In this document: positions 2,531 through 41,085 of the stretch, piece by piece
Layout: each line of letters opens with the position of its first letter
Position numbering within the stretch: position 1 is the stretch's first letter
Assembly (NCBI GenBank): GCA_017379075.1
Contig: JAFNXL010000037.1
Location: forward strand, 1-54,572
Length of the DNA: 54,572 nucleotides
Direction of reading: 5' to 3'
Source: Bacteroidaceae bacterium
GTDB lineage: Bacteria > Bacteroidota > Bacteroidia > Bacteroidales > Bacteroidaceae
Notes under the pieces: model-generated
What the model was told of the DNA's origin: nothing
The model's database searches: none
The model's input: only the letters and a program-made list of their open reading frames with translations
Made by a program: the position numbers and the translations under genes

Positions 2531-2630
2531 TTTTTACATCACGATGTAAATGGATTTACCCTTCGATGTAAACACATTTACCTTTCTATGTAAACGGATT
2601 TACGCTTAAGGGTAAATCTGTTTACAATTC
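2531..2630 (+). repeat. 22-bp-period palindromic array, family A (TTTAC/GTAAA), left copy
   Basis: TTTAC starts at 2533, 2555, 2577, 2599 and 2621; GTAAA starts at 2546, 2568, 2590 and 2612. Both words recur at exactly 22 bp, giving alternating inverted pairs that could form a row of short stem-loops or a helically phased protein-binding array. A nearly identical copy lies inverted at 40981-41085; I see about two substitutions across 95 aligned bases. The 725-bp gene-free stretch 2266-2990 also holds a shared 28-bp block and a family B array, and otherwise nothing recognisable. Confidence 0.9.
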
Positions 2631-2690
2631 TATATAATGACTTTGTAAATACAAAACGTTGTGTTTTTGCACTTTATGTGTATTGTATTT

Positions 2691-2719
2691 TAGCGAACAA
2701 CTGATGTTTTTTGGCGAAT
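2691..2719 (+). repeat. Short conserved block between arrays A and B, left copy
   Basis: The bases AGCGAACAACTGATG and then TTTTGGCGAAT recur in inverted orientation at 40816-40845, in both places just beside a family A array. The block is not part of the 22-bp array. It shows that the duplicated unit is longer than the array itself. Function unknown. Confidence 0.75.
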
Positions 2720-2830
2720 TGTATGTGATTGGGTGGAGGGACAAGAAAAGAACACACATTCGTACATCATCAGCGATTGGCCTGTTTTTCTATGCTACAA
2801 AAAGTTTGCGTACCAGTTTACTTACACTAC

Positions 2831-2906
2831 AGTACCATACGGCTGATACTCCAGTACCAAGCGACTGGTACTGCAGTACCAGTTGTTATACACCAAAGTT
2901 GGTACT
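2831..2906 (+). repeat. 22-bp-period palindromic array, family B (AGTACC/GGTACT), left copy
   Basis: AGTACC starts at 2831, 2853 and 2875 (spacing 22). Its complement GGTACT starts at 2867 and 2901, with a degenerate GATACT at 2845, which is 22 bp before 2867. The layout is the same as family A with another word. A second copy is inverted at 39640-39714. It lies downstream of the sensor kinase gene (minus strand), so a role in transcription termination is possible but unproven. Confidence 0.85.
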
Positions 2907-2990
2907 GTAATTTAACGATTTTAGTTGACTTCCATTTGCCTTATTTGCGATACCGGTTGATACGATTTGTTAATTCTCATTGACCCGACT

Positions 2991-4277
2991 TTACTTCCTC
3001 AAAATAAAGTCAAACCGCAAACCGCCATTTGGACGGTTGCTGGCGGTTATTGTGCCACCATGAAACTGGACTGCGTGTTTGACTATGGCAAGACCGAGAC
3101 CCGTACCACCTTTTTGTCTTGAACGTCCTTTGTCTACCCGATAGAATCGCTCAAACAGACGTGTCAGTTGTTTCTCTTCCACCCCAACACCATCATCCTC
3201 AAAGCGGATATGACACTCTTTGGCATCATTGGCCATGAGCGAGATATAGATGTTTTTTCCCTCGGAATAGGCTATTGCATTCTCGATAAGATTGCGGAAA
3301 ATTGAACCTATGAGCGAAAGATTGCCTAGGATTACCACACGTTCGTTAAAGTCTGTATGCAGCGTCATACGCTCCTCGTCCGGCATTATCTCCAACTCAT
3401 CGGCAATCTCACACAAGATATCATTGAGCACAACCTTCTCTTTACCAATATGCGCGCTTCCGTCTTCCATTCTTGTAATTAGCGACACATCGGCCAATAA
3501 CCGCCTGAGCCGCTCGTTATTTGTATAGCACCTTTCTATGAGTTCCTGACGTTTCTCTTCGCTTAGGCTGATGCCCGAAAGCAACGTTTCAAGACACACC
3601 TGGATGGAGGCTACGGGTGTCTTCAATTCGTGATTGATATTGTTTGTAAGGTGGCGTTTGAGACGATTTTTCTCTTGTTCTGCCTCGTAACGATTAACCC
3701 GCTCTATGTCCTTGCCCAACTTGCGAGTGGTGAAATAGGCTATCACACTCATTGAAAGTGTGATGGAAATCATCACTATGAGGAAAGACCAATCGGCTTC
3801 GAGCAAGTCTTGCAATGTGCTCGAATATGGCATAGCGGTGCGGACAATGACCCTTTCACCCCGTGTTGCCGAGTAGAAATATTCGCGTCCGTCACTCTCT
3901 GACTGACGCCCGATGTGATAACCCGAACCGTCTTTAAAGGCATCCACAATCTCGGGACGATTGCTGTGATTTCCAAGCGAATCGGCTGGTATTGTATTAT
4001 CATACACAACTGCGCCCGACAACGTGATGAGCGTTATTCTGAGGTCGTCAAACGGTTTTTCATGCGATGCAATGTATTCTTCATACGATTCTCCGTCTTC
4101 GATGGCTACGAGGAGATGCCGGTTGTATTGTTGCAACTGGGCACTCAGAAACCCAGACTTATACTCTTTTTCCCGCAGGTATTGAAAGCCGATAAAGCAG
4201 ACGACTATCGTCCAGGAGAACGCGATGAGTTGCAGGAATAGCCTTTTGTGGAAAGATAATTTAGTCGCGGAAGCCAT
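2991..4277 (-). CDS. Sensor histidine kinase (PhoR-like)
   Basis: 428-residue inner-membrane kinase. Membrane segments at about 13-33 and 163-184 flank a periplasmic sensor region of about 130 residues. The H-box INHELKTPVAS places the phosphorylated His at 216. Next come the N-box NLIENAIAYS and the ATP-binding boxes DDGVGV and GGTGLGLAIVKHAVQF, so all HATPase parts are intact. No clear HAMP domain was recognised. The gene overlaps the response regulator by 17 bp, so the two are cotranscribed and translated together. Because the pair is divergent from a Na+/phosphate symporter, I infer a phosphate-limitation sensor of PhoR type. Family membership is firm; the signal is inference. Confidence 0.85.
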   Translation of the reverse strand: MASATKLSFHKRLFLQLIAFSWTIVVCFIGFQYLREKEYKSGFLSAQLQQYNRHLLVAIEDGESYEEYIASHEKPFDDLRITLITLSGAVVYDNTIPADSLGNHSNRPEIVDAFKDGSGYHIGRQSESDGREYFYSATRGERVIVRTAMPYSSTLQDLLEADWSFLIVMISITLSMSVIAYFTTRKLGKDIERVNRYEAEQEKNRLKRHLTNNINHELKTPVASIQVCLETLLSGISLSEEKRQELIERCYTNNERLRRLLADVSLITRMEDGSAHIGKEKVVLNDILCEIADELEIMPDEERMTLHTDFNERVVILGNLSLIGSIFRNLIENAIAYSEGKNIYISLMANDAKECHIRFEDDGVGVEEKQLTRLFERFYRVDKGRSRQKGGTGLGLAIVKHAVQFHGGTITASNRPNGGLRFDFILRK

Positions 4278-4956
4278 AACCGAAACCTGAACGGGTTACT
4301 ATATATGAACCGTAAACGCCAATCTTTGAGCGCAAACGGGTTATGTTCACATCAATTGTGCGGTCAAGCACCACCACTTCGTTGCTCCACACACGGCTTA
4401 GAATCTGCTCGCGGGAACATATCTTTCCCCGATGTGAGATGAGGTAGGCCAACAGCTCAAATTCCTTGCGGGCCAGTTTAACCTCTTCGCCATCAACAAG
4501 ACAACGCTTGAACTCCAAATCCAGTTGTAATCCATCGACCTTCAAGACATTCGGCTTTTCCTCCTTGGCATTGGATTTATGACCCGATGTCCGTCTCAGC
4601 ACACTCTTTACACGGGCTATCACATTACGAATGGTATAGGGCTTCATTATGTAATCGTCCGCACCAAGATTCAACCCCATAACCATATCATCCTCTGTAT
4701 CACGAGCCGTACAAAAGATGATTGGAATATCGGCTGTCGTTACATCGGCTTTCAGCATCTTGGCCATTTTTATTCCGCTGATTTCTCCCATCATTATGTC
4801 AAGGAGAATGAGCGAATATCGTGTCAGGTCGTAGGCCAGAGCCTGTTCGGCACTGAAAGCAATGTCCACGTCGTAGCCCTCATTCTCAAGATTGATTTTC
4901 AACACCTCACACAGCGTCTCTTCGTCATCCACTATCAAAATTCGCTCTGCTGCCAT
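4261..4956 (-). CDS. OmpR/PhoB-family response regulator
   Basis: 231-residue cytoplasmic regulator starting MAAERILIVDDEE; this ATG is chosen over the in-frame one at 5073 because the receiver domain begins right after it. The receiver has the acidic pair DD at 10-11, the phosphorylated Asp53 in LILLDIMMG, and Lys in DDYIMKPY. The C-terminal winged helix contains LARKEFELLAYLISHRGKIC and the recognition region VVLDRTIDVNITRLRSKIG. Its partner kinase overlaps its 3' end. A TAATTTTG box on the minus strand (4984-4991) is a candidate -7 element. The position opposite the phosphate symporter makes that gene the likely target. Confidence 0.87.
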   Translation of the reverse strand: MAAERILIVDDEETLCEVLKINLENEGYDVDIAFSAEQALAYDLTRYSLILLDIMMGEISGIKMAKMLKADVTTADIPIIFCTARDTEDDMVMGLNLGADDYIMKPYTIRNVIARVKSVLRRTSGHKSNAKEEKPNVLKVDGLQLDLEFKRCLVDGEEVKLARKEFELLAYLISHRGKICSREQILSRVWSNEVVVLDRTIDVNITRLRSKIGVYGSYIVTRSGFGYGFRD

Positions 4957-5083
4957 ATACTTATTATATATATTACTATGCTGCAAAATTATAGAGAAAA
5001 ACTGAATTGCGTTACCGGCAAAAAGAGATTTAATGAAAATGTAATATTTTTCATCAAGTCTGTATTTAACCAAAGCCTAATTA

Positions 5084-5121
5084 TTTTGAAACATTTTTGA
5101 AACATATTTACAGTTACTTTG
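5084..5121 (+). promoter_or_regulatory. Candidate Pho box (two 11-bp direct repeats) with promoter
   Basis: TTTTGAAACAT occurs twice without a gap (5084-5094 and 5095-5105). The 11-bp period equals the spacing of PhoB direct repeats in proteobacterial Pho boxes. It is followed by TTACTTTGC (5114-5122), close to the Bacteroidetes -7 consensus, about 30 bp before the symporter ATG. The repeats would thus sit in the -33 region, as expected for a PhoB-type activator. The sequence is seen directly; the regulator link is inference. Confidence 0.55.
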
Positions 5122-5147
5122 CACTTGAAAATTTATAATAAATAATT

Positions 5148-6884
5148 ATGGGTATATTACAAATTTTTACGCTGTTGGGAGCATTGGGTATGTTCCTTTA
5201 CGGAATGAACTTAATGAGTTCTGGTCTGCAAAAGGCTGCAGGAGAGAGATTAAGAGGATTTTTGTCGGCCATGACATCAAATCCGTTCAAGGGAGTTATG
5301 ACCGGATTGGGTATAACATCTATTATCCAATCTTCATCAGCTACAACTGTCATGGTAGTCAGCTTTGTCAACGCCGGTCTTCTGACGCTTGCACAAGCAA
5401 TCGGTGTCATCATGGGCGCCAACATCGGTACCACTGTAACAGCTTGGATGGTATCGTGGTTGGGTTTCAAAGCAGACATCTCTGTACTTGCCGTTCCGTT
5501 GATGCTGTTGGGCTTTCTGTTCTCAAACTCAAAGATTGACAAGCGAAAGAATATAGGTGAGTTAATCGTGGGATTCTCACTTCTCTTCTTGGGGCTCTCA
5601 TTTATGAAAGACTCTGTACCAGACCTTCGCGAGACACCTCAGGTTTTGGAGTTTGTAAGTTCCTGGTCGGCTCACGGATTTGGTTCTGTGCTTTTGTTCC
5701 TGGCCTTTGGTACCATTTTAACCTTGGTCTTGCAGTCGTCTTCTGCCACTATGGCCATTACGCTTATTATGCTGAGCATGGGATGGATTCCTTTTGAAAT
5801 GGCATGTGCGATGGTGCTTGGTGAGAATATCGGCACAACAATTACAGCAAATATCGCGGCCTCTGTAGGAAATACAGAAGCCAAGCGTGCGGCAATGTCG
5901 CACACTATTTTCAACGTATTCGGTGTGGTGTGGGCTTTGATTCTTTACAAGCCATTCTTGCGTCTGGTGGGAACTATTACAGAAAACTTGTTTGGATTGC
6001 CCAATCCTGCAGCAGAGGGTTTTGTGGTAACAGATTCTATTTCAGCAGAAGGCACGGCCGCTTTGTATGGCCTGTCAATGCTGCATACGCTGTTTAATTT
6101 GACCAACACCCTTCTATTGGTCTGGTTTACAAAGTGGATTGCACAAGCTGTAAGTTGGATTGTCCCGACACCCAAAAACCAAGCAAAAGAAGTTTTCCGA
6201 CTCAAGTATATTTCAGCCGGACCTTTGGCCACTCCAGAACTGTCTGTTGGGCTAGCTTTTGAAGAGATTATTAGTTTCGCCAAAATTTCAAAGAACGGAG
6301 CCAATTATGCACAAAATGCAATCAATGAAGCCGATACGGATAAATTTGAAGAACTACGGAGCAAACTCGTTAAATATGAAGAAATTTCGGACCGCATAGA
6401 ATATGAGATTGCCACATTTCTTAACGGGATTTCCGCAGAAGAAATTAGCGAAAGCACATCGCTCAAGATCAAGTCCATGTATAAAATTATCGGTGAGTTG
6501 GAATCATTGGGAGACTCTGGAGAAACAATCAGCCGTATATTGTCAAGAAAGAACATACACAACAAGAAGTTCGATGCAGATATTATCAAGAACCTTAATG
6601 CAATGGCTGATGCTGTGAATGCGGCATACGATGTAATGATTGAAAACTTGACAGCGGCTCACAAGGGCGAACTGACCAATATCTCAAACGCATACAATGC
6701 CGAAGACCGCATCAACACACTCCGCAATAATCTACGCGATGCAGTTATTGAGAATATAGAAAACGATGGTAAGAACTATCAAACAAACGTTTATTACATG
6801 GATGTCATCAATGCTTATGAGAGCATGGGAGATTTTATGATAAACGTCTCACAAGACCTTGAGAAGGGATTTATTCACAAATAG
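5148..6884 (+). CDS. Na+/phosphate cotransporter with C-terminal PhoU-like domain
   Basis: 578-residue inner-membrane protein. The duplicated signature QSSSATT is present twice (IIQSSSATTVMVV and LVLQSSSATMAIT), marking the two inverted Na_Pi_cotrans halves; about nine hydrophobic segments lie in residues 1-330. The soluble C-terminal part (about 350-578) is helical and PhoU-like. The family imports inorganic phosphate with sodium. The ATG at 5148 starts right at the hydrophobic MGILQIFTLLGALGMFLYGM. It is divergent from the two-component genes and preceded by tandem 11-bp repeats, which suggests induction under phosphate starvation. No frameshift or missing motif was seen. Confidence 0.88.
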   Translation: MGILQIFTLLGALGMFLYGMNLMSSGLQKAAGERLRGFLSAMTSNPFKGVMTGLGITSIIQSSSATTVMVVSFVNAGLLTLAQAIGVIMGANIGTTVTAWMVSWLGFKADISVLAVPLMLLGFLFSNSKIDKRKNIGELIVGFSLLFLGLSFMKDSVPDLRETPQVLEFVSSWSAHGFGSVLLFLAFGTILTLVLQSSSATMAITLIMLSMGWIPFEMACAMVLGENIGTTITANIAASVGNTEAKRAAMSHTIFNVFGVVWALILYKPFLRLVGTITENLFGLPNPAAEGFVVTDSISAEGTAALYGLSMLHTLFNLTNTLLLVWFTKWIAQAVSWIVPTPKNQAKEVFRLKYISAGPLATPELSVGLAFEEIISFAKISKNGANYAQNAINEADTDKFEELRSKLVKYEEISDRIEYEIATFLNGISAEEISESTSLKIKSMYKIIGELESLGDSGETISRILSRKNIHNKKFDADIIKNLNAMADAVNAAYDVMIENLTAAHKGELTNISNAYNAEDRINTLRNNLRDAVIENIENDGKNYQTNVYYMDVINAYESMGDFMINVSQDLEKGFIHK

Positions 6885-6977
6885 TCTGTTATCTGTGTAT
6901 AAAATCTTGGGCTAAGAAACCCTGTTTAAACCGGTACACCTTTAAAGAGTTTGAGCAACATTATTACATCCGAAATA

Positions 6978-7221
6978 TTGTCAAATCTTTTTACTTTTGT
7001 TTTTGCTGTGTTTCGGAGGTTTTGAACGGGGAAAATGGCAGAAAATGCTATAAAAAGTCAACAACCCCCAAAAACAAGGTTTCCAGTTGGGAAAAAATAA
7101 TTCTCCAACTGGAAACATATTTTTTTCCAACTGGGCGCTTTTTTCCGCCCAACTGGCATTTTTCTCTTTGCTGTATTCTTGTTGGTATGTGAACGAGTAA
7201 CTATTTTGTAAAGAATATTTA
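6978..7221 (+). repeat. 22-bp-period palindromic array, family C (CCAACTGG), left copy with flanks
   Basis: CCAGTTGG at 7083 and CCAACTGG at 7105, 7127 and 7149 are spaced exactly 22 bp. The spacers are A/T-rich. The repeat unit extends beyond the array: TTGTCAAATCTTTTTACTTT (6978-6997) and a block TTTTGTAAAGA near 7205 also recur, inverted, around the second copy at 39343-39587. It fills most of the 402-bp gap between the symporter gene and GH28, which are convergent here. Confidence 0.88.
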
Positions 7222-7286
7222 CTTGATGTTTGAGTTGCCCCAATCGGGAGAAAAGAAGTTTTTGTCTCCACAATTCCGACAAACGG

Positions 7287-8615
7287 TCAATTCACCTTTT
7301 GGCCGTTTACCTTTACATTTTTCAATTTGAAGTTTTCCACATAATCCACACGGATCTCGGGGCTGTCCGATGCCGTCACCTCAATGTCTTTGAAGGTAAA
7401 GTCCTTGAGACTGTATTGGTCAAGTGCCTTCTGCACATCAAATAATACTTTGCAGTTGAGGTTGATGTTGCTCAGAACCACGTTGGATGAGCGCGAGTAG
7501 GGCATATCCTTGCGTCCTTTCAGGTCGAAGAACTGCGTCCAAGGCTTCACATAGAGCATGCTGTGCACATTGCCCCGTATGCCCTCCACGGTGATGTACT
7601 CGTAATTCTGCTCGGTATCCGGACGCATCTTGAGCCACAACATTCGGGCTGCATTCTTTACCTCACAATTGCGCAACACGATGTTATAGTTATGCAGTGA
7701 CTCGCTGCCACAAGTGAGCATGCTATGACAAAATCCATAAGTACAGTCCTCGATGATGATGTTGCGGTTCTCGCCATTATTCACGGTGTCTTTGTGTGCC
7801 CAGGGACCTTTTCCGCCTTTCAACGCTATGGCATCGTCATTGACAGAAAAGTAGCAACCGTTAATATGCACATCAGTACACACATCAATATCAATAGCAT
7901 CGCTGCTGGGTGCCGGTACCGGTGCAGAAGGAGCAAATATGTAGAGTTCCGATATCTTCACTCGTTTGCACTGATAAAGATGCGTGGTCCAGAAGGGCGA
8001 GTTCATAAGGCGCACGCCCTGGAGCCGCACATCGTCGCAGCCCTGAACAAACACCAGTCGCGGACGCATCTCATCAAGATTGGTACATTGGCTGTTGTAC
8101 TTGCGGCGAATCCAGAACTGTTTCCAATAGCGCAAGCCGTTTCCGTTGATGGAGCCTTCGCCAGAGAGCGTGAAGCCATCGCAACCGATGGCATTCACCA
8201 AGGCTGCAAAATACTTGAGGTTCTGCCCCTCCATTCTTGTATCGATGAGTTTGAAGTCGCCTATAAAATCGCTGCCTTTAAGCACTGCACCTTTTTGTAA
8301 ATGCAAATGTGTACCAGGTTTGAAGAAAAGCGAACCGCTGAGGAAAGTTCCCTTGGGAATCACCACCACACCACCGCCATTTTCCGCCGCCTTGTCAATC
8401 ACTGCCTGTATCTGCACCGTCTGCAGCAGAGTGCTGTCCTGTTTCACACCATGGTCTGTGATTACGTATTGCTTGCCCAGCGAATTCACATCCACGCAAC
8501 TGGTCTTGGCAAACCATTCGGACACAGCCGTACCATCGGGCCACTTGTCCTTTGCGTTGACATTTATGCTGCATAAAAGCAGAATAAGAACCGGTATTAT
8601 GTACTTTCTCATCAT
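7287..8615 (-). CDS. Secreted glycoside hydrolase family 28 (polygalacturonase-like)
   Basis: 442-residue exported right-handed beta-helix enzyme; signal peptide about 1-21 (ending VNA). Motifs of GH28 in order: PVPAPSSDAIDID, NDDAIALKGG, CTYGFCHSMLTCGSES (the place of the usual GHG loop), and a late ARMLWLKMR. The Asp residues in DAIDID and NDDA are the expected catalytic acids. The family cleaves alpha-1,4-galacturonosyl or related pectin bonds by inversion; whether this one is endo or exo cannot be told. The start is either of two adjacent ATGs. It lies 16 bp downstream of cysK on the same strand, itself 28 bp after the HAD gene, so the three may share a transcript. Confidence 0.85.
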   Translation of the reverse strand: MMRKYIIPVLILLLCSINVNAKDKWPDGTAVSEWFAKTSCVDVNSLGKQYVITDHGVKQDSTLLQTVQIQAVIDKAAENGGGVVVIPKGTFLSGSLFFKPGTHLHLQKGAVLKGSDFIGDFKLIDTRMEGQNLKYFAALVNAIGCDGFTLSGEGSINGNGLRYWKQFWIRRKYNSQCTNLDEMRPRLVFVQGCDDVRLQGVRLMNSPFWTTHLYQCKRVKISELYIFAPSAPVPAPSSDAIDIDVCTDVHINGCYFSVNDDAIALKGGKGPWAHKDTVNNGENRNIIIEDCTYGFCHSMLTCGSESLHNYNIVLRNCEVKNAARMLWLKMRPDTEQNYEYITVEGIRGNVHSMLYVKPWTQFFDLKGRKDMPYSRSSNVVLSNINLNCKVLFDVQKALDQYSLKDFTFKDIEVTASDSPEIRVDYVENFKLKNVKVNGQKVN

Positions 8616-8631
8616 CTTTCACACTTATCCT

Positions 8632-9558
8632 CTACGGCATGAAAAGCTTTGTGCTGAGATAGCGTTCACCTGTGTCGGGCAGGAGCACAACGATACGCTT
8701 GCCTTTGTTTTCGGGCCGCAGAGCCAACTGTATGGCGGCATGGACGGCAGCTCCACTGCTGATGCCCGTCAGCAAGCCTTCAGTTGCGGAAAGCTGACGG
8801 CCAGCCAAATACGCCTCCTCGTCCGTTACGCGGATTACTTCGTCTATCAGTTTTGTATCAAGTATCTCGGGAATGAATCCGGCACCGATGCCCTGCAAAC
8901 CATGCGCACCAGCCTTTCCGCCACTAAGAACTGCGCTGTCGGCCGGCTCCACCGCCACAATCCTTATCTGCGGGTTGTGTTTCTTGAGTGTGCGCGCTGT
9001 ACCGGTGAGCGTACCACCCGTACCAACGCCAGCCACAAAGATATCCACCTGTCCGTCGGTGTCTTCCCAGATTTCCTCTCCGGTGGTCAGTTCGTGCGCT
9101 TCAGCATTGGCCGGATTGGTGAACTGACCCAGAATAACCGCCCTAGGCGTTTCACTGTACAGGCGTTCTGCCTCGCTGATTGCCCCCTTCATGCCCTGTG
9201 CACCAGGTGTGAGGACTAGCCGTGCACCTGACGCACGCAAAAGGCTTTGCCGTTCCACACTCATGGAATCGGGCATCACAATGATGGCTTCGTAGCCTTT
9301 CACGCGACTTATCCATGCCAGTCCCACACCAGTGTTTCCGCTGGTAGGTTCTATAATCACACTGCCAGGACGGAGCAGTCCACGCGCTTCGGCATCCTCA
9401 ATCATGTGCAATGCCACACGATCCTTTACGCTTCCGCCGGGATTGAAAGCCTCCACCTTTGCCACCACTTGCGCCAATGCTCCATGGAGCGAAGCCATGC
9501 GCTGCAAGTTGAGCAAGGGGGTACGTCCTACAAGCTCTGTCAGATTCTGATATATCAT
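8632..9558 (-). CDS. cysK: Cysteine synthase A (O-acetylserine sulfhydrylase)
   Basis: 308-residue cytoplasmic PLP enzyme making L-cysteine from O-acetylserine and sulfide. The PLP lysine is K45 in NPGGSVKDR; the substrate loop TSGNTGVG, the phosphate-binding GTGGTLTG and the late GISSGAA loop are all present. Length matches CysK (about 310). Gene order HAD-cysK-GH28 on the minus strand with gaps of 28 and 16 bp suggests an operon, although the functions do not connect. No serine acetyltransferase gene is in the window. Confidence 0.93.
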   Translation of the reverse strand: MIYQNLTELVGRTPLLNLQRMASLHGALAQVVAKVEAFNPGGSVKDRVALHMIEDAEARGLLRPGSVIIEPTSGNTGVGLAWISRVKGYEAIIVMPDSMSVERQSLLRASGARLVLTPGAQGMKGAISEAERLYSETPRAVILGQFTNPANAEAHELTTGEEIWEDTDGQVDIFVAGVGTGGTLTGTARTLKKHNPQIRIVAVEPADSAVLSGGKAGAHGLQGIGAGFIPEILDTKLIDEVIRVTDEEAYLAGRQLSATEGLLTGISSGAAVHAAIQLALRPENKGKRIVVLLPDTGERYLSTKLFMP

Positions 9559-9586
9559 ATTATATAATGTATTACGAATTAAGAAA

Positions 9587-24126: not shown

Positions 24127-24852
24127 ATGACAAAAGGTAGAATACACTCCATAGAATCATTCGGCACGGTGGACGGCCCCGGCATCCGCTTCGTGGCCTT
24201 CATGCAGGGATGTCCTCTGCGCTGCCAATACTGCCACAACCCCGACACTTGGGATCCCAACGGCAATTGCCAGTATGAACTCACTCCAGAAGAACTGGTA
24301 CAGCAGGCTCTTCGCTACAGCAGCTATATTGCCAGCGGAGGCGTCACCCTTTCTGGAGGTGAGCCACTCATGCAGGCCCAGTTTGTGAAGGAATACTTCC
24401 AACTTTGCCAGCAGGAAGGGCTGCACACCGCACTGGATACCAGCGGTGCCTATTGCAGCGGACGCGCCCTGGAAGCACTGGATTACACCAATCTGGTACT
24501 GCTGGACATCAAGACACTGAACCCCCAGCTCTATCCCACACTCACCGCCGGCAAACTGGAAAACAACCTTCGCATGCTCGATGTCCTTCAGGAACGCGGC
24601 ATTGACACTTGGCTGCGACACGTTGTGGTGCCCGGACTGACAGATGACGACGAATGGCTGAACAAAGTGGGAGAACTTGCCGCTCGCTTCAGTGTGGTCA
24701 AGAAGATTGAAATCCTTCCCTATCATACCCTGGGCAAGTTCAAGTACGAAAAGATGAACCTTGTCTATCCGTTGGAAGGCGTTGAACCTCTTTCACGCGA
24801 GAGGGCACAGGAAATACGCGAACGACTATCGGCTTACAAACCTTGCAGCTGA
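24127..24852 (+). CDS. pflA: Pyruvate formate-lyase activating enzyme
   Basis: 241-residue radical SAM activase that puts the glycyl radical on PflB. The cluster motif is C29, C33, C36 in GCPLRCQYCHNPDTW. SGGVTLSGGEPLMQ and LDTSGAYC are the following SAM- and cluster-binding segments, and LRHVVVPGLTDD is typical of PflA. Length matches the family (about 245). It lies behind pflB with an attenuator-like hairpin between. Its stop overlaps the ATG of tag (TGATG). Confidence 0.95.
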   Translation: MTKGRIHSIESFGTVDGPGIRFVAFMQGCPLRCQYCHNPDTWDPNGNCQYELTPEELVQQALRYSSYIASGGVTLSGGEPLMQAQFVKEYFQLCQQEGLHTALDTSGAYCSGRALEALDYTNLVLLDIKTLNPQLYPTLTAGKLENNLRMLDVLQERGIDTWLRHVVVPGLTDDDEWLNKVGELAARFSVVKKIEILPYHTLGKFKYEKMNLVYPLEGVEPLSRERAQEIRERLSAYKPCS

Positions 24853-25433
24853 TGCCGATGGAAAAGTGTGAATGGTGCCATGACGGCGGACTTTTGGAAA
24901 AGTATCACGACACAGAGTGGGGCATTCCCTGCCACAACGACAGGATGCTCTTTGAATATCTGATGCTCGAAGCCATGTCCGCCGGACTCAGTTGGATGCT
25001 GATGCTGCGCAAGCGCGAGATTTTCCGTGCCTGCTTTGCTGGTTTCGACTACGAAAAGGTTGCCCTCTTCACCGCAGAGGACGTGGACAAGGCAATGGCA
25101 TATCCCGGTATGATAAAATCGCGAAGAAAGATAGAAGCCATCATTGGCAATGCTCGTTGCTTCATCCAGATAAGACAGGAATTCGGCAGTTTCGACGCCT
25201 ACCTGTGGCAATACACCGACGGCCATACCCTCATCTATCAACAACATCTCAACGGCGAATGGATTACCAGGAACCAACTCTCCGACGCCATTGCCGCCGA
25301 CCTTAAGAAACGCGGATTCAAGTTTCTTGGCTCCACACTGCTCTATTCCTATCTGCAAGCCGTAGGTCTGATAAACGACCACGCCACCACTTGTCCCATG
25401 TTTAAGAAAATAGGCGGAAAAATTTTTACATAA
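24852..25433 (+). CDS. tag: DNA-3-methyladenine glycosylase I
   Basis: 193 residues from the ATG at 24852, which overlaps the pflA stop by one base; the in-frame codon at 24843 is TTG, and a second ATG is at 24858. It removes 3-methyladenine from alkylated DNA. Tag features: KCEWCHDGGLLEKYHDTEWG at the start, SAGLSWMLMLRKRE, and a C-terminal HATTCPMF. The N-terminal Cys/His and the C-terminal His/Cys correspond to the family's Zn site. Coupled translation with pflA is odd functionally and may be chance. Confidence 0.92.
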   Translation: MPMEKCEWCHDGGLLEKYHDTEWGIPCHNDRMLFEYLMLEAMSAGLSWMLMLRKREIFRACFAGFDYEKVALFTAEDVDKAMAYPGMIKSRRKIEAIIGNARCFIQIRQEFGSFDAYLWQYTDGHTLIYQQHLNGEWITRNQLSDAIAADLKKRGFKFLGSTLLYSYLQAVGLINDHATTCPMFKKIGGKIFT

Positions 25434-25450
25434 AAATCGGGTAAAAATAA

Positions 25451-25526
25451 CACTTAAGTGTTTCTTCAGTAACAGTTAAGTGTTTTTCAAAAAAGACTTA
25501 AGTGTTTCCGGAGTTTCACTTAAGTC
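25451..25526 (+). repeat. 22-bp-period palindromic array, family D (ACTTAAGT)
   Basis: ACTTAAGT starts at 25452, 25496 and 25518 and a variant AGTTAAGT at 25474: exactly 22 bp apart. The word is a perfect palindrome, in several copies extended to CACTTAAGTG. The spacers are T-rich with runs of T or A. It begins 17 bp after the tag stop and ends in TTTTTTT. No second copy is in the window. The rest of the 322-bp gap 25434-25755 shows only short direct repeats (gagttatgagctgcgagtag type). Confidence 0.88.
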
Positions 25527-25755
25527 TTTTTTTCGTGTGTTTTCAGGAGTTATTTCATTTGTTTATATCCACCTGATTATAAGAATGTTGAAATTTTTCA
25601 TATATTCCTTCCTCACCCCAAAATCCCCTTTTCTTGTTTTTTGACAAATATGGGGAATGGGACGCGGAAGAAACAAATGCGACAAATTTTTGAGTAGTGA
25701 GTTATGAGCTGCGAGTAGTGAGTTTTTGGGGATGCGAGTTGTTGGTTCGCGTCTT

Positions 25756-34325: not shown

Positions 34326-34347
34326 TGTGCAAGTGGGGGAGGGTGAA

Positions 34348-36006: not shown

Positions 36007-36010
36007 TGTG

Positions 36011-36718
36011 CTAAAGGTTATTCGATTTTAAAAGTTGTATCAGTTCTTCCATACCCTCGGAAGCCCCCTTCATGATGTGGGTGAAGCGGTGGTTGCTGTT
36101 CCATTTTACGGGTTTGGGGTCAATGAGGTAGATGGGACATTCGTCTGGTACGAATTGGGTGAGTCCGGCGGCAGGATAGACGTTCAGGCTGGTGCCGATG
36201 ATGATGTAGATGTCTGCCAAAGCACTCATTTCCGCGGCCATCTCAATTTGTGGCACGGGTTCGCCAAACCAGACGATGAAGGGGCGCAGCTGGCTTCCGT
36301 CTGCTGAAAGGTCGTCTATTTTCACTTCAAGGTGGTCCGTATCAAGTGTGCGGATGTACTTGGGGTTGTTGGGCTGCAGGCTGCTGGTCACCTTCATCAG
36401 CTCGCCGTGCAGATGGATAACGTTGGTGCTGCCTGCCTGTTCGTGCAGATTGTCCACGTTCTGTGTGATGACGGCCACCTCATAGTCTTTTTCCAACTGG
36501 GCCACAAGCTGATGCGCCTTGCAGGGCTTTACCTGAAGCAATTGTTTGCGGCGCAGATTGTAGAATTCGGTAACCAGAGCGGGGTCTTTCTGCCAACCTT
36601 CGGGGGTGCATACCTGTTCCACATCATACTGTTCCCACAGACCGCCGTTGTCGCGGAATGTGCTGATGCCACTTTCGGCACTTATGCCGGCACCGGTCAA
36701 AACAATTACTTTCTTCAT
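36011..36718 (-). CDS. Sir2-type NAD-dependent deacylase lacking the zinc cysteines
   Basis: 235 residues. NAD-binding and catalytic motifs are complete: VLTGAGISAESGISTFR, TQNVDNLHEQAG and the catalytic His104 in HLHGEL; IGTSLNVYPAAGL follows. The four-Cys zinc ribbon usual after the HG motif is absent: only Cys36 and Cys66 occur, plus one late Cys, with no CxxC. The stretch KVTSSLQPNNPKYIRTLDTD replaces it. Such zinc-less sirtuins occur in this phylum. First gene of the operon; a minus-strand TATTTTTG box (36740-36747) is a good -7 candidate. Confidence 0.85.
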   Translation of the reverse strand: MKKVIVLTGAGISAESGISTFRDNGGLWEQYDVEQVCTPEGWQKDPALVTEFYNLRRKQLLQVKPCKAHQLVAQLEKDYEVAVITQNVDNLHEQAGSTNVIHLHGELMKVTSSLQPNNPKYIRTLDTDHLEVKIDDLSADGSQLRPFIVWFGEPVPQIEMAAEMSALADIYIIIGTSLNVYPAAGLTQFVPDECPIYLIDPKPVKWNSNHRFTHIMKGASEGMEELIQLLKSNNL

Positions 36719-36829
36719 GTAAAACCATGTTAATTAACGCAAAAATACGAAAAAAAAACATAAGGATAGGCATTAGATGAATAAAAAGTAGTAATTTTGC
36801 GCCGCATTAGAGACATTATATATAAAAAG

Positions 36830-37414
36830 ATGGATAAAATAAGTTATGCTTTGGGTCTTGGAATAGGCCACCAGCTCAAGAACATGGGCATTGAGAATTT
36901 TAGTGTTGAAGACTTTGCGCAGAGCATCAAGGACGTGATGGAAGACAAGGCTACCGCCATGACTTCACAGGAAGCACAGGCCCTGCTGAACACTTATTTT
37001 CAGGAAAAGCAAAAGGCAGAATCACAGAAGGCCATCAGCGAAGGAAAGGCCTTCCTGGAGGAGAATGCCAAGAAGGAGGGTGTGGTTACGACAAAGAGCG
37101 GACTGCAATACGAAATCCTGACCGAGGGAACCGGCAAGCAGCCCAAGGCCACCGACACCGTGCGTTGCCACTATGAAGGAAGCCTTATCAACGGTTCTGT
37201 ATTTGACAGCAGCTACAACCGCGGCGAACCCGCCGAGTTCGGACTGAGCCAGGTGATTCCCGGATGGACCGAAGGCGTTCAGCTGATGAAGGAAGGCGCA
37301 AAGTACCGCTTCTACATTCCCTATCTGTTGGGTTATGGCGAAAACGGTGCCGGAAGCAGCATTCCTCCCTACAGCACCCTGATCTTCGATGTAGAATTAA
37401 TAAAAGTATTATAA
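36830..37414 (+). CDS. FKBP-type peptidyl-prolyl isomerase (cytoplasmic-type)
   Basis: 194 residues from the ATG at 36830; the upstream in-frame TTG lies in the promoter. An N-terminal helical dimerisation domain (about 1-85, MDKISYALGLGIGHQLKN) precedes the FKBP domain: VRCHYEGSLINGSVFDSSYN, QVIPGWTEGVQLMKEGAKYRF and GSSIPPYSTLIFDVELI. There is no signal peptide, unlike the next two paralogues. It catalyses cis-trans isomerisation of prolyl bonds. A TAATTTTG box at 36792-36799 is the likely -7 element for all three tandem genes. Confidence 0.88.
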   Translation: MDKISYALGLGIGHQLKNMGIENFSVEDFAQSIKDVMEDKATAMTSQEAQALLNTYFQEKQKAESQKAISEGKAFLEENAKKEGVVTTKSGLQYEILTEGTGKQPKATDTVRCHYEGSLINGSVFDSSYNRGEPAEFGLSQVIPGWTEGVQLMKEGAKYRFYIPYLLGYGENGAGSSIPPYSTLIFDVELIKVL

Positions 37415-37437
37415 AATAATTATCAGTTAAAATTAAA

Positions 37438-38307
37438 ATGAAAAAGTTTGGTTTTATTTGTGCTGCCGTTCTCGCAGCATTGATGTCTTCTTGTGGAAAC
37501 GGAACTCCCACAGCAGACATGAAGAGTGATTTGGATTCTTTGAGCTATGCAGTAGGTATGGCACAGACTCAGGGTCTGAAGGAATATCTGGTACAGCGCA
37601 TGGGCGTGGATACCGTTTACATCAACGAGTTTATCAAGGGTCTGAACGAAGGTGCAAACGCTGGTGACGACAAGAAGAACACCGCTTACTATGCAGGTAT
37701 CCAGATTGGTCAGCAGATCAGCCAGCAGATGGTAACTGGTCTGAACAACGAACTGTTCGGCGAGGACAGCACCAAGACCATCAGCCTGAAGAACTTCATG
37801 GCAGGTTTCGTTGCCGGAACCACTGGTAAGGGCGGTCTCATGAGCGTAGAGGATGCCGGTAAGATGGCTCAGGCCAAGATGCAGGTTATCAAGGCTCAGC
37901 ACATGGAAGAGGTTTACGGACCCAACAAGAAGGCTTGTGAAGAGTTCATGGCTAAGATTGCCAAGAAGGAAGGCATCAAGAAGCTGGAGAACGGTGTGTT
38001 CTACGAAGTGTTGGTTGAAGGCAAGGGTGAGATTCCCGCTGACACCAGCCGTGTAAAGGTTAACTACGAGGGTAAGCTCATCAACGATTCAATCTTCGAC
38101 AGCTCTTATGAGCGCAACGAGCCCACCACCTTCCGTTGCAATCAGGTAATCCCCGGATGGACAAACGCTCTGACCCACATGCCCGTTGGTTCTACCTGGA
38201 TGGTTTACATTCCCCAGGATCAGGCTTATGCTGACCGCAAGGCTGGTATGATCGATCCCTTCTCTTGTCTGATTTTCAAGATTGAACTCCTCGGCATCGA
38301 GAAGTAA
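37438..38307 (+). CDS. FKBP-type peptidyl-prolyl isomerase, lipoprotein
   Basis: 289 residues. The signal MKKFGFICAAVLAALMSSCG ends in a lipobox with Cys19, so it is an envelope lipoprotein. An FkpA-like N-terminal domain (YAVGMAQTQGLKEYLVQRMG onward) and an FKBP domain from about 200 follow: VKVNYEGKLINDSIFDSSYE, QVIPGWTNALTHMPVGSTWM. The aromatic pocket looks complete. The C-terminal loop ADRKAGMIDPFSCLIF differs from the usual G-x-IPP form. It is 23 bp after the first paralogue and 5 bp before the third. Confidence 0.88.
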   Translation: MKKFGFICAAVLAALMSSCGNGTPTADMKSDLDSLSYAVGMAQTQGLKEYLVQRMGVDTVYINEFIKGLNEGANAGDDKKNTAYYAGIQIGQQISQQMVTGLNNELFGEDSTKTISLKNFMAGFVAGTTGKGGLMSVEDAGKMAQAKMQVIKAQHMEEVYGPNKKACEEFMAKIAKKEGIKKLENGVFYEVLVEGKGEIPADTSRVKVNYEGKLINDSIFDSSYERNEPTTFRCNQVIPGWTNALTHMPVGSTWMVYIPQDQAYADRKAGMIDPFSCLIFKIELLGIEK

Positions 38308-38312
38308 TCGTC

Positions 38313-39212
38313 ATGAAGCACATAAGAATATTTTGTTTCTCTTTACTGGCGCTGTGTTGCATCGGCACCATGGCTGCCGGTAAAAAGAAAACCAAGAAGG
38401 ATAAGAAAGCGCCCGTGGAAGTGGTGGATACCGTAAGCGTGGATACGTTCAGCTATGCTTGCGGAAAGGCCAACACCCAGGGTCTGAAGAACTATTTGGT
38501 GCAGCGTCTGGGCATGGATACCACCTACATGGATGATTTCATGAAAGGTTTTGACCAGATTCTTCTCACCGAAGCCGACAAGAAGGCCAAGGCCCGACTG
38601 GCTGGAATAGAAATCCGCACACAGTTGGAAACCCAGATTCTTCCCAACGTGAACAAGCAGATCAGCGACTCTGCCGACATCGTAGTAAAGGAAATGTTCA
38701 TCCAGGGTTTCAAGGACGGTCTCATGGGAGCCAACATGCACATCAGCATGGACAGCACCCAGAAGATTGTGTCCAAGCAGGCAGCTTATTATCAGAAGGT
38801 AAAGACAGAGAAATTGTATGGCGCCAACCGTGCGGCCGGAGAAGAATTCCTCAAGTTGAACGCCAAGAAGGACAGCGTAAAGACCACTCCTTCTGGCCTC
38901 CAGTACAAGGAAATCAAGACCGGAACCGGAGAAAAGCCCCAGCCCACGCACAAGGTAACGGTTCACTACGAAGGCCGACTCATTGACGGAACCGTATTTG
39001 ACAGCAGTTACCAGCGCAACAAGCCCGCCACCTTTGCCTGTGGCCAGGTGATAAAGGGATGGACCGAAGCCCTCACCATGATGCCTGTAGGCAGCAAGTG
39101 GGAACTGTACATTCCCCAGGAACTGGGTTACGGAGCACGCGAACAGGCCAAGATTCCTCCCTTCTCTACCCTCATTTTCACAGTGGAATTACTTGGAATA
39201 GAGAAACAATAA
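38313..39212 (+). CDS. FKBP-type peptidyl-prolyl isomerase, exported
   Basis: 299 residues. Signal MKHIRIFCFSLLALCCIGTM probably cleaved after MAA. A Lys-rich stretch (GKKKTKKDKKA) follows, then an FkpA-like helical domain with QGLKNYLVQRLGMDTTYMDD, closely parallel to the second paralogue (QGLKEYLVQRMGVDTVYINE). The FKBP domain has VTVHYEGRLIDGTVFDSSYQ, QVIKGWTEALTMMPVGSKWE and IPPFSTLIFTVELL. It probably acts as a periplasmic folding catalyst. A terminator follows at 39231. Confidence 0.88.
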   Translation: MKHIRIFCFSLLALCCIGTMAAGKKKTKKDKKAPVEVVDTVSVDTFSYACGKANTQGLKNYLVQRLGMDTTYMDDFMKGFDQILLTEADKKAKARLAGIEIRTQLETQILPNVNKQISDSADIVVKEMFIQGFKDGLMGANMHISMDSTQKIVSKQAAYYQKVKTEKLYGANRAAGEEFLKLNAKKDSVKTTPSGLQYKEIKTGTGEKPQPTHKVTVHYEGRLIDGTVFDSSYQRNKPATFACGQVIKGWTEALTMMPVGSKWELYIPQELGYGAREQAKIPPFSTLIFTVELLGIEKQ

Positions 39213-39230
39213 ATTTGCATACAACACAAG

Positions 39231-39277
39231 AACACCCCTTAAAGGCCCCAAAACAGGCTTTTAAGGGGTGTTTTGTT
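39231..39277 (+). terminator. Terminator of the FKBP operon
   Basis: AACACCCCTTAAA (39231-39243) pairs with TTTAAGGGGTGTT (39260-39272), followed by TTGTTTTT. It lies 19 bp after the last FKBP stop; the stem is 13 bp without mismatch. Confidence 0.85.
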
Positions 39278-39342
39278 TTTCTATTAATTTATACCATTAG
39301 CTTTTGGCCATTGGCGAAGTTGTAAAACACCCAACAGAAAAA

Positions 39343-39587
39343 GTAAATAATCTTTACAAAACATAAAATCGTAAAGACACAGATTTTAACGCGGTAAAGA
39401 AAAAAACTCCAGTTGGGCGGAAAAAGGCGCCCAACTGGAAAAAAATATGTTTCCAGTTAGACAAATTTTTTTTCCCAACTGGAAACCCTGTATTAGGGGG
39501 TTATTCGTTTTTTAATGATCAATCTTCCATTTTCCCCTTTCAAGGCATCCGAAAAACGGTAAAAGATAAAGTAAAAAGATTTGACAA
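39343..39587 (-). repeat. 22-bp-period palindromic array, family C, right copy (inverted)
   Basis: CCAGTTGG/CCAACTGG-type words start at 39409, 39431, 39453 (variant CCAGTTAG) and 39475, exactly 22 bp apart. Flanks match the left copy in inverted orientation: AAAGTAAAAAGATTTGACAA at 39568-39587 is the exact complement of 6978-6997, and TCTTTACAAAA near 39351 matches the other end. The 809-bp gap 39213-40021 holds, in order, the FKBP terminator, this repeat, family B, and the Abi leader. Confidence 0.88.
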
Positions 39588-39639
39588 AAGACGGCCTTCC
39601 CTATGACAATGTATTGTCAAGAGAAAGACAAAGCATTTC

Positions 39640-39714
39640 AGTACCAACTTTGGTACATAATAAATGGTACTGCAGTACCAGCCAATTGGTACTGGAGTAT
39701 CAGCTAATTGGTAC
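39640..39714 (-). repeat. 22-bp-period palindromic array, family B, right copy (inverted)
   Basis: GGTACT/GGTAC starts at 39666, 39688 and 39710; AGTACC starts at 39674 and, as AGTATC, at 39696: period 22. On the minus strand it reads GCTGATACTCCAGTACCA as in the left copy. It is separated from the family C copy by about 50 bp, whereas the left copies are 4 kb apart. Confidence 0.85.
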
Positions 39715-39846
39715 GTTGTAATTATTAATTGTCTTTGTGATATACGAAATGCTAGTTTTAGGCAACCATTGGGTTTAAAATTCATACAATTAACGGTTCA
39801 AGGGTTGATTTGACAGAATGGTTTCTCTTTTTGACGATTTTTTTCG

Positions 39847-39854
39847 TACCTTTG
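39847..39854 (+). promoter_or_regulatory. Candidate -7 box for the Abi leader RNA
   Basis: TACCTTTG matches TAnnTTTG and places a start of transcription near 39861, about 160 bp before the Abi ATG, leaving room for a structured leader. No clear -33 element was found. Confidence 0.5.
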
Positions 39855-39860
39855 CACTTG

Positions 39861-39990
39861 GTTTTGCAATGATGCATGCAATACATCAAGAATCATAAAC
39901 CCTATATAAAACTAGACCCCGTAACTTGACTGAGGTCAGAGGTTACGGGGAATCAACAATGCAAATGTAGCGCTTTTATTGCAAAGCACC
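39861..39990 (+). ncRNA. Structured leader RNA upstream of the Abi gene (abiF-motif candidate)
   Basis: A G+C-rich hairpin, CCCCGTAAC (39917-39925) with GTTACGGGG (39942-39950), encloses TTGACTGAGGTCAGAG, which has an inner TGAC/GTCA pairing. TTTGCAAT (39863-39870) is complementary to ATTGCAAA (39978-39985) and could close the whole molecule as an outer stem. A GATG/CATC pair (39871/39884) gives another arm. Published work describes an abiF RNA motif directly upstream of Abi_2-domain genes in Bacteroidetes and other phyla; position and size here fit. Identity is inferred from context and not from a covariance search. Confidence 0.6.
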
Positions 39991-40021
39991 AAACATTTTA
40001 CAAAGTAAGTGGGTAAAATAT

Positions 40022-40723
40022 ATGAATTTTAAGGATTTTGAACAAGCTTTGTCATCTGAAAGGCTCAATAGATACATGGAAGCGTGCAATTACGACTCCC
40101 GAAAGGCGATGACCCTTTATCGTTACAACCTTCGACTTTCTCAGGAGATGTTTACCATATTGAGTTGCTTTGAAGTTACTTTGCGTAACGCTATTGATCA
40201 ACGTCTGCGCTTGTCGCTTGGCAATGATTGGCTGCTTGACTCCTTCCAGACAGGAGGTATATTTGATACTCCAAGGCTTGCTCGAACATCCAATATTGTT
40301 CGTGGTGGTTACAGACGTTTACAAGAAGTGGGTAAACCCTACTCTCATGTTGGACTTCTTTCCGAAATGGAGTTTGGTGTATGGAAGCATATGTTCTCTC
40401 GTGAACAGTTTGCTGCGACTGGTCGGTGTCTTCTTACCGTCTTTCCCCACAAACCTACATCTACACCAACGATGCAATATAATCACACCTACATGTTCAA
40501 CGAACTTGATAAGGTCAACACCCTTCGTAATCGTATAGCTCATCACGAACCTATTTGCTTTGCTTTAGGGGCTTCGCAAATAGATACAACATATATCATT
40601 AGCCAATATGAGCGTGTACACCGTCTCTTTGCTTGGATGGGATATGATAGCGAATCGATGCTATACGGCTTGGATCATGTAAGAAGGGTCTGTGCCGAGA
40701 TTGACAATCTTGTTAGAATGTGA
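40022..40723 (+). CDS. Abi-family abortive infection protein with HEPN RNase motif
   Basis: 233 residues, all helical in appearance, no signal. The N-terminal block LYRYNLRLSQEMFTILSCFE then VTLRNAIDQRL is typical of Abi_2/AbiD/AbiF proteins. The HEPN ribonuclease motif R-x4-H is seen as R169-N-R-I-A-H174 in NTLRNRIAHHEP. Such proteins are phage-exclusion toxins that cleave RNA when unleashed. The structured leader 30-160 bp upstream suggests an RNA antitoxin partner, as proposed for AbiF systems related to Cas13 ancestry. The gene sits between repeats of families A and B, an insertion relative to the left-hand set of repeats. Codon use is A+T-richer than core genes. Confidence 0.78.
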   Translation: MNFKDFEQALSSERLNRYMEACNYDSRKAMTLYRYNLRLSQEMFTILSCFEVTLRNAIDQRLRLSLGNDWLLDSFQTGGIFDTPRLARTSNIVRGGYRRLQEVGKPYSHVGLLSEMEFGVWKHMFSREQFAATGRCLLTVFPHKPTSTPTMQYNHTYMFNELDKVNTLRNRIAHHEPICFALGASQIDTTYIISQYERVHRLFAWMGYDSESMLYGLDHVRRVCAEIDNLVRM

Positions 40724-40815
40724 ATTAAACATTAACGGAACTAAATAATGCTTAACCTTTGGGATTTTTTGTTGTTGCTATGCCACGATAAAAATCGATG
40801 CAAAGTATAAACTAT

Positions 40816-40845
40816 ATTCGCCAAAACTCATCAGTTGTTCGCTAT
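40816..40845 (-). repeat. Short conserved block between arrays, right copy (inverted)
   Basis: ATTCGCCAAAAC then CATCAGTTGTTCGCTAT is the complement of the block at 2691-2719, with two extra bases. It is part of the duplicated unit that carries array A. Confidence 0.75.
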
Positions 40846-40980
40846 AGCAAAATCGGGTTCCATTGTAACCGAGAAGCGATGAAGTATATGACAAAAAGAT
40901 GGCTTCATTAGCGCATAACAGTCTATTGGCTGATTTGTGTTAAACCCAGATTCACAACAAAATACATTTACATCACCCTT

Positions 40981-41085
40981 ACATGGAATTGTAAATAGAT
41001 TTACCCTTAAGCGTAAATCCGTTTACATAGAAAGGTAAATGTGTTTACATCGAAGGGTAAATCCACTTACATCGTGATGTAAAAA
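40981..41085 (-). repeat. 22-bp-period palindromic array, family A, right copy (inverted)
   Basis: GTAAA starts at 40991, 41013, 41035, 41057 and 41079; TTTAC at 41000, 41022 and 41044, with the fourth (41066) altered to CTTAC. The complement is nearly the same base for base as 2531-2630, including spacer bases, so the copies spread recently or are under selection. The remainder of the gene-free 40724-41383 interval shows nothing I can name. Confidence 0.9.

What the first reader, a model, noticed from the sequence alone, without database searches (positions are those of the whole stretch)
2531..41085. Seven intergenic arrays of short inverted words at an exact 22-bp period, in four word families
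Seen directly: TTTAC at 2533, 2555, 2577, 2599, 2621 with GTAAA at 2546, 2568, 2590, 2612; AGTACC at 2831, 2853, 2875; CCAGTTGG/CCAACTGG at 7083, 7105, 7127, 7149; ACTTAAGT-type at 25452, 25474, 25496, 25518; and inverted copies at 39409-39482, 39640-39714 and 40991-41083, each also at 22 bp. The words differ completely but the period is always 22 and the number of units 3-5. A 22-bp step is about two helical turns, so each word would face the same side of the DNA. I infer a class of elements shaped by one machinery (a dimeric DNA-binding protein, a repeat-making polymerase or transposase, or RNA hairpin arrays) and know of no description of it.
Basis: partly seen in the sequence, partly recalled or inferred. 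Interest (0 to 1): 0.9.

Follow-up and report, generated by a model that had tools for sequence, protein, structure and literature searches.

The report
Intergenic 22-bp phased palindrome arrays
Between the genes of this gut bacterium and many of its relatives lie short runs of palindromes repeated exactly every 22 base pairs, apparently conserved though the spelled word changes from family to family, and they may be docking sites for an expanded group of DNA-packaging-like proteins.

Summary
Confirmed. All seven arrays are at the stated coordinates with an exact 22-bp step. The pattern is far wider than this window: in 25 same-genus genomes, 47 of 299 intergenic gaps hold a 7-mer repeated at exactly 22 bp (median per lag 6); E. 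coli plus Clostridia give 3 of 126. Words differ between families and genomes, but the unit is usually a two-fold palindrome centred between base pairs (26 of 43 arrays; 4 odd-centred). At orthologous sites in a sister genome the arrays diverge 2.1%, their flanks 6.9%, so they are probably constrained. Here they ride on small dispersed elements: D (about 230 bp, mostly behind a co-oriented ORF), C (about 245 bp) and an A-B-C composite.

Best reading: docking arrays, one protein dimer per 22 bp. Candidate binder: the HU-HIG branch of HU/IHF proteins. Outside the genus, arrays occur in 5 of 8 genomes with strong HU-HIG matches and 0 of 26 without, and they are enriched upstream of HU-HIG genes. 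Phylogeny and intergenic length partly confound this. No A-D array was tied to a particular protein.

The parts
2531..2640 (+). array A, 5 units of 22 bp, word TTTAC N8 GTAAA N4
   Evidence: 11 distinct places in own genome (my count)
2523..2911 (+). A-B part of the composite element (C part absent here)
   Evidence: alignment with copies in L110, L111 and 39341-41093
2826..2911 (+). array B, word GTACC / GGTAC
6978..7222 (+). C element with conserved ends TGTcAAAtcTTTTTACt ... TTTGTAAAgaTtcTTTAC
7083..7156 (+). array C, 4 units, word CCAACTGG / CCAGTTGG
25418..25649 (+). D element, ends AAAAATCTTTACA ... CTTGTTTTTTGACAAAT; overlaps the stop codon of the glycosylase ORF 24843-25433
25449..25531 (+). 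array D, 4 units, word AACACTTAAGTGTT; units 3-4 form a hairpin followed by a T tract
39341..39587 (-). second C element
39409..39482 (-). array C, second copy
39635..39714 (-). array B, second copy
40953..41093 (-). A part, second copy (array 40991-41083)
39341..41093 (-). A-B-C composite, interrupted between A and B by DNA that carries the ORF 40022-40723

Best explanation
The seven arrays belong to a Bacteroidales class of intergenic arrays whose 22-bp unit is usually a two-fold palindrome made of two inverted 11-bp half-sites. The word changes between families and species while the geometry is kept. In this genome they are carried by small dispersed elements (D; C; an A-B-C composite). Shown: presence, geometry, spread in the sampled stretches, low divergence at orthologous sites. 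Inferred: each 22-bp unit docks one homodimer of a DNA-binding protein, successive dimers lie on the same face of the helix two turns apart, and binding is cooperative. Leading candidate, inferred from association only: HU-HIG proteins, an HU/IHF-superfamily branch (own genome: 10 matches to the profile, plain HU included), each paralogue with its own word and sometimes its own array upstream of its gene. Likely effect: local folding or silencing of intergenic and foreign DNA, and self-regulation. In family D the same palindromes probably also act as a terminator behind genes.
For: Period: (intergenic period-22 arrays: 5 in 374 kb own; 17 in 383 kb and 10 in 378 kb of same-genus genomes; 5 in 700 kb outside the genus; 0 in 200 kb E. 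coli; 0 in 80 kb Clostridia). Two-fold symmetry: 26 of 43 arrays even-centred at p<0.05 against 4 odd-centred, even better than odd in 35 of 43, p 4e-5; folding beats column-permuted arrays in 29 of 52 arrays of period 21-23. Constraint: 26 of 1250 array sites differ from a sister genome against 253 of 3684 within 150 bp, p 5e-12, and against 172 of 4162 farther intergenic sites, p 4e-4. D's word is array-only: AACACTTAAGTGTT occurs at 24 sites in 3.0 Mb, all 24 inside D hits. HU-HIG, genomes outside the genus: period-22 arrays in 5 of 8 with strong matches, 0 of 26 weak (p 2e-4). HU-HIG, upstream regions: 7 of 20 against 29 of 467 gene starts in the genus, 3 of 16 against 5 of 179 elsewhere. 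In the 300-bp window named in the written prediction, both sets together: 7-mer lag 22 in 13 of 36 against 40 of 646, p 5e-7; arrays 6 of 36 against 23 of 646, p 0.003. In 3 of 12 genomes examined the array upstream of a HU-HIG gene resembles an array elsewhere in that genome (own C11 and L135, 21-bp array, E 9e-18; G029, E 7e-5; G016, weak, E 0.001).
Against: No family A-D array was found upstream of the 7 own HU-HIG genes examined, of 10 matches. HU-HIG copy number does not track array density within the genus (25 genomes, one with 3 kb left out; rho -0.17, p 0.42). In the genus alone the predicted 300-bp window gives arrays in 3 of 20 against 19 of 467, p 0.055. When only the background is limited to upstream gaps of at least 250 bp, the enrichment falls to p 0.15 (arrays) or 0.015 (7-mer lag); with one gap rule on both sets the 7-mer lag stays enriched in every stratum, the arrays at p 0.002, 0.08 and 0.02. 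The genome-level association is not corrected for phylogeny. Of 3 strong-HU-HIG genomes sampled afterwards, 2 showed no array in 20 kb, and both arrays of the third lie next to a HU-HIG gene on a contig I had picked from the HU-HIG table. 13 of 43 arrays show no significant dyad. Solo sites, usual for a regulator, were not seen for D's word. No binding has been measured.
Confidence: 0.42

Rival explanations
1. RNA-level elements: the arrays are transcribed and their hairpins end or stabilise transcripts; 22 is arm plus loop. For family D this is probably true in any case.
For: D lies downstream of a co-oriented ORF in 17 of 21 copies, in 10 of them less than 55 bp behind its end; units 3-4 pair as AAAAGACTTAAGT..ACTTAAGTCTTTT before a T tract; fold z -6.9 (D), -6.4 (A), -4.6 (B), -4.6 (C); the sister genome has, by eye, an ordinary hairpin terminator behind the same glycosylase gene. 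The terminator scan flags both C copies, one of two A arrays and one of two B arrays in the window.
Against: Over the genus, own genome included, arrays of period 21-23 show no clear preference for gene ends: tandem 12, convergent 10, divergent 9 of 31, expected shares .58/.21/.21. Hairpins give no reason for an exact 22-bp period across unrelated words or for even centres. The terminator scan finds nothing at D, whose 12-nt loop exceeds what it allows.
Confidence: 0.27
2. Selfish MITE-like elements: the arrays are subterminal binding sites of a transposase, one word per transposase.
For: C and D are discrete elements with conserved ends and a degenerate interior; by eye A, C and D ends share TTTACA-like motifs; about 10 (B) to at least 28 (C) distinct places per family (my count).
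Against: The arrays diverge less than the DNA around them at orthologous fixed sites. The C end motifs, scanned at a cut-off that keeps three quarters of known ends, occur only with C arrays in 730 kb of own sequence. In several other genomes array-to-array similarity stops at the array. Target-site duplications were not evident by eye.
Confidence: 0.18
3. Neutral minisatellites made by replication slippage or hairpin extension.
For: Tandem repeats arise this way; 7-bp and 41/42-bp tandem runs also occur here.
Against: Slippage gives no preferred 22-bp period with different words; in 18 arrays of 15 orthologous pairs no base is inserted and 2 are missing in the sister genome, and substitutions are rare.
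Confidence: 0.08

Closest known systems
BrickBuilt MITE of Porphyromonas gingivalis (PMC4596501; abstract, section 5 and part 1 of section 7 read)
   Same: Bacteroidales, intergenic, tandem 23-nt units between non-repeated flanks, 19 copies in strain ATCC 33277; the paper also mentions 22- and 41-nt repeats in strain W83.
   Different: 23-nt unit, a single word, 1 to 22.8 units, IS5-like ends GAGACC; no phased palindrome geometry or protein link described in what I read.
REP / BIME sequences and RAYT transposases (PMC3733652; passages read)
   Same: Intergenic palindromes in many copies, some clustered; roles in termination and DNA supercoiling hypothesised.
   Different: Tagged 20-40 bp palindromes; no fixed 22-bp step in what I read; no RAYT (PF01797) match in four of the five genomes outside the genus that have period-22 arrays.
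TAACTGA direct repeats (PMC4679880; abstract and passages read)
   Same: Intergenic short-word repeats, some in Bacteroidetes, function unknown.
   Different: 7-bp direct repeats; no inverted words and no 22-bp step in what I read.
Prokaryotic satellites (PMC6749651; abstract and passages read)
   Same: Survey of tandem repeats in bacteria.
   Different: Needs at least 4 repeats; the main text does not hold '22 bp', 'Bacteroidetes' or 'Porphyromonas', though its family table lists a Flavobacterium family of 69 bp.

Membership tests
BrickBuilt-type MITE | tandem unit of 23 nt | tested here: not met
   22 bp in all seven arrays
BrickBuilt-type MITE | IS5-like terminal repeats GAGACCTTTGCA | tested here: not met
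   conserved ends of C and D read otherwise
BrickBuilt-type MITE | intergenic, dispersed, tandem core with flanks | tested here: met
REP/BIME with RAYT | presence tracks RAYT (PF01797) | tested here: not met
   G142, G080, G134, G135 have arrays but no PF01797 match; G086 has 7, own genome 2
MITE | conserved ends and many copies | tested here: met
   C and D
MITE | target-site duplication and an autonomous partner with the same ends | tested here: inconclusive
   no duplication evident by eye; C end motifs only with C arrays in 730 kb; no clean empty site obtained; no search for transposase genes other than RAYT
intrinsic terminator (family D) | hairpin followed by T tract behind a co-oriented gene | tested here: met
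   the consensus scan does not flag it; function itself not measured
CRISPR | repeats separated by unique spacers | tested here: not met
   units are contiguous and the spacers resemble each other between copies
HU-HIG binding sites | arrays occur with HU-HIG genes and upstream of them | tested here: inconclusive
   positive; weakened and in the 300-bp genus test
HU-HIG binding sites | physical binding | not testable with these tools
   no binding assay here

The most novel reading that the evidence does not exclude
A lineage-wide protein-DNA code: paralogous HU-HIG proteins, expanded in Bacteroidales, each recognise their own 22-bp palindrome, spread it as phased arrays through intergenic and mobile DNA, regulate themselves through an array upstream of their gene, and together build species-specific nucleoid or silencing marks whose words diversify while the two-turn geometry stays fixed.
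Probability: 0.28. Interest if true: 0.93.

Novelty: new variant of a known kind. Interest (0 to 1): 0.74.

Why it matters
About one intergenic gap in six in the sampled stretches of this genus holds a 7-mer repeated at 22 bp, and the arrays tested diverge about three times less than the DNA within 150 bp of them, yet I found no description of the class in the library searched. If the HU-HIG link holds, it gives a function and a binding code to a large, poorly understood family of DNA-binding proteins in common gut bacteria, and makes lineage-specific nucleoid organisation directly testable. If only the weaker reading holds, it still points to a kind of constrained noncoding DNA not described in what I searched, with family D as a probable dispersed terminator.

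Tried and rejected
Chance: rejected. RAYT as maker: rejected. General terminator function: not supported outside D. Solo regulator sites: none for D's word. Common function of neighbouring genes: none among 10 neighbours, which gave HAD hydrolase, ribosomal protein S8, DsbD, an FAD-binding flavoprotein, BatD, RecR, two DUF families, no family once, and HU-HIG once. Spread on mobile DNA: no match for the A-B stretch in plasmids, for D in phages, or for a D-word pattern in viral contigs; other combinations were not tried. G-U asymmetry in D stems to tell RNA from DNA: no clear asymmetry. HU-HIG copy number against array density within the genus: no correlation. A dyad test on consensus units was weak (9 of 44 intergenic arrays at p<0.05); the profile test replaced it. 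A clean empty site: not obtained; the sister locus lacks D, but its other flank differs.

Limits: genes are ORFs only. In one search three duplicate pairs were dropped, and the sister loci had been fetched by similarity to C or D, which favours conserved arrays; the A and B arrays in those pairs were not chosen that way. In one search, 4 of 38 genomes outside the genus were left out because their stretch read N. The 20 HU-HIG upstream regions are the first-listed match of each genome down to G021, except G028, skipped because its match holds a stop codon; the 16 outside the genus were picked by hand from the top of the list, avoiding contig ends. The prediction named 300 bp, the first tests used about 540 bp; one search gives both. 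Expansion of HU-HIG in Bacteroidetes (Burroughs et al. 2017) is recalled; a search found no paper on it in the library. Nothing-in-print rests, open-access papers only.
Full report
WHAT IS THERE. The window (contig C45 of a 3.0-Mb, 106-contig genome; nearest named relative found a water-buffalo caecum Bacteroidaceae MAG) carries the seven arrays exactly as described. One search finds 5 period-22 runs where shuffles give 0.2 hits per window over periods 10-79. The reverse-strand arrays are diverged copies of the forward ones, part of the flanks included. A further 12/24-bp array lies at 46140-46246.

ELEMENTS. Matches in the own genome, opposite-strand hits included: A 18, B 12, C 40 with 40 of 53 candidates scored, D 47, E 2. 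By my count of the listings these are 11, 10, at least 28, 23 and 2 distinct places. D aligns over about 230 bp in 20 copies: conserved ends, a conserved array and a degenerate rest (mean information 1.69 bits in the array against 1.19 to its left and 0.90 to its right). C aligns in 36 copies from two genomes; its ends, about 200-230 bp apart, occur only with C arrays in 730 kb. A, B and C also form one composite of about 650-700 bp in that order, complete in L110 and L111; in L113 the order of A and C differs. The right-hand window copy is split by DNA with the ORF 40022-40723. D has a co-oriented ORF upstream in 17 of 21 copies, in 10 of them ending less than 55 bp before it (17 of 21 against one half, p 0.007). 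In the sister genome the same glycosylase gene is followed, by eye, by an ordinary hairpin terminator instead.

A WIDER CLASS. Stretches chosen without regard to arrays show that this is not a peculiarity of one genome. Intergenic period-22 arrays at score 16 or more number 5 in 374 kb of the own genome, 17 in 383 kb of five same-genus genomes, 10 in 378 kb of twenty more, 5 in 700 kb of 38 genomes outside the genus (one of the same family), 0 in 200 kb of E. coli and 0 in 80 kb of two Clostridia. By lag spectrum, 47 of 299 same-genus gaps hold a 7-mer at lag 22, with 33 at 44, 31 at 21, 28 at 14 (7-bp runs) and 22 at 66, against a median of 6. The own genome gives 19 of 162, genomes outside the genus 16 of 278, and the controls 3 of 126 (same genus against control p 2e-5). 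Words differ: the D query matches 1 of 60 other same-genus genomes at E 1e-6, while the sister genome G158 has 40 matches, opposite-strand hits included; 11 of its 16 distinct D loci fetched pair by flank with own copies (my count).

GEOMETRY. Of 43 intergenic period-22 arrays (5 from the window, 1 from Hallella), 26 have an even-centred dyad at p<0.05 against column permutation and 4 an odd-centred one; even beats odd in 35 of 43. 13 arrays have none. In a tandem array a dyad repeats every half period, so such a unit is two inverted 11-bp half-sites. Folding energy beats column-permuted arrays at p<0.05 in 29 of 52 arrays of period 21-23. Even centres suit a protein dimer on duplex DNA; hairpins alone would not demand them. 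That last step is inference.

CONSTRAINT. In 15 orthologous locus pairs with the sister genome (three duplicates dropped), arrays differ at 26 of 1250 sites, their surroundings within 150 bp at 253 of 3684, farther intergenic DNA at 172 of 4162, ORFs at 1054 of 20648; in the 18 arrays no base is inserted and 2 are missing. Words and spacers are alike in this (6 of 384, 10 of 504). Homogenisation between copies could also lower divergence, and the choice of loci favours conserved C and D arrays.

MECHANISM. D's units 3 and 4 are an inter-unit hairpin before a T tract, so D is probably a terminator, although the simple terminator scan does not flag it. For the class as a whole gene ends are not clearly preferred (12 tandem, 10 convergent, 9 divergent). 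D's 14-bp palindrome is found at 24 sites in the genome, all inside D hits. I therefore favour docking arrays. Searching for a binder, I noted HU-HIG as a candidate after one such gene turned up 62 bp from an array. Test 1, genomes: among sampled genomes outside the genus, 5 of 8 with strong HU-HIG matches (best E below 1e-15; the list has a gap between 3e-18 and 2e-12 in the genomes sampled) have period-22 arrays and 0 of 26 others do, p 2e-4; adding three genomes sampled afterwards gives 6 of 11 against 0 of 26, but both arrays of the added genome G087 lie beside a HU-HIG gene on a contig I took from the HU-HIG table. Test 2, loci, prediction noted for 300 bp upstream: with about 540 bp, 7 of 20 HU-HIG regions in the genus have an array against 29 of 467 gene starts (p 2.6e-4; 7-mer lag 22 in 10 of 20 against 44 of 467); outside the genus 3 of 16 against 5 of 179 (p 0.02) and 8 of 16 against 16 of 179 (p 1e-4). 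With 300 bp: genus, arrays 3 of 20 against 19 of 467 (p 0.055), lag 5 of 20 against 31 of 467 (p 0.011); outside, 3 of 16 against 4 of 179 (p 0.013), lag 8 of 16 against 9 of 179 (p 5e-6). Lags other than 22 and 44 reach at most 6 of 36 between 10 and 50 bp. Against: restricting only the background to upstream gaps of at least 250 bp weakens the 540-bp result to p 0.15 and 0.015, though one gap rule applied to both sets keeps the lag enriched in each stratum (6 of 10 against 27 of 334, 5 of 14 against 18 of 151, 7 of 12 against 15 of 161); copy number does not follow density within the genus; and none of the 7 own HU-HIG upstream regions examined shows a family A-D array, though one (C11) has a 21-bp array whose relative lies in L135. 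All 61 genomes of the genus search, the own one included, match the HU-HIG profile, but that profile also catches plain HU proteins.

VERDICT. A real, widespread and probably functional class of intergenic DNA, a new variant of known intergenic repeats; its nearest described relative found is BrickBuilt of P. gingivalis (PMC4596501). The binder hypothesis is the most interesting open point and is directly testable.

Noticed in passing
40022-40723 (+): ORF of the Abi_2 / PD-T4-5-like kind placed between the A and B parts of the composite element; next to it 41384-42412 is DUF2971 with a PDC-S31 candidate-defence match.
   Followed up: partly
46140-46246: Period 12/24 array with GTGCA / TGCAC words, one more copy in contig C1 and a similar 12-bp run in another same-genus genome (L240).
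   Followed up: partly
25489-25531: In the window copy of D the stretch between words 3 and 4 reads, but for one base, as the reverse complement of that in related copies such as L074 and L075 (by eye), as if the loop had been inverted.
   Followed up: no
L105-L109, L116, L118 between D and C: Filler made of other dispersed repeats, for instance CACAGATNACACAGAT-like runs, GGACGCTGCACGCAGACGTCC and 7-bp runs such as CTCATCA.
   Followed up: no
L134:18332-18658, L135:17134-17317, L136:10895-10983, L148:11383-11699: Intergenic arrays of period 41 or 42 in the same genome, some with dyads by eye.
   Followed up: no
L303:353-442 and L135:6654-6715: A 21-bp array upstream of an own HU-HIG gene and a relative of it elsewhere in the genome.
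   Followed up: partly
36797-39212: Three consecutive ORFs sharing diverged repeats, the last an FKBP-type isomerase.
   Followed up: no
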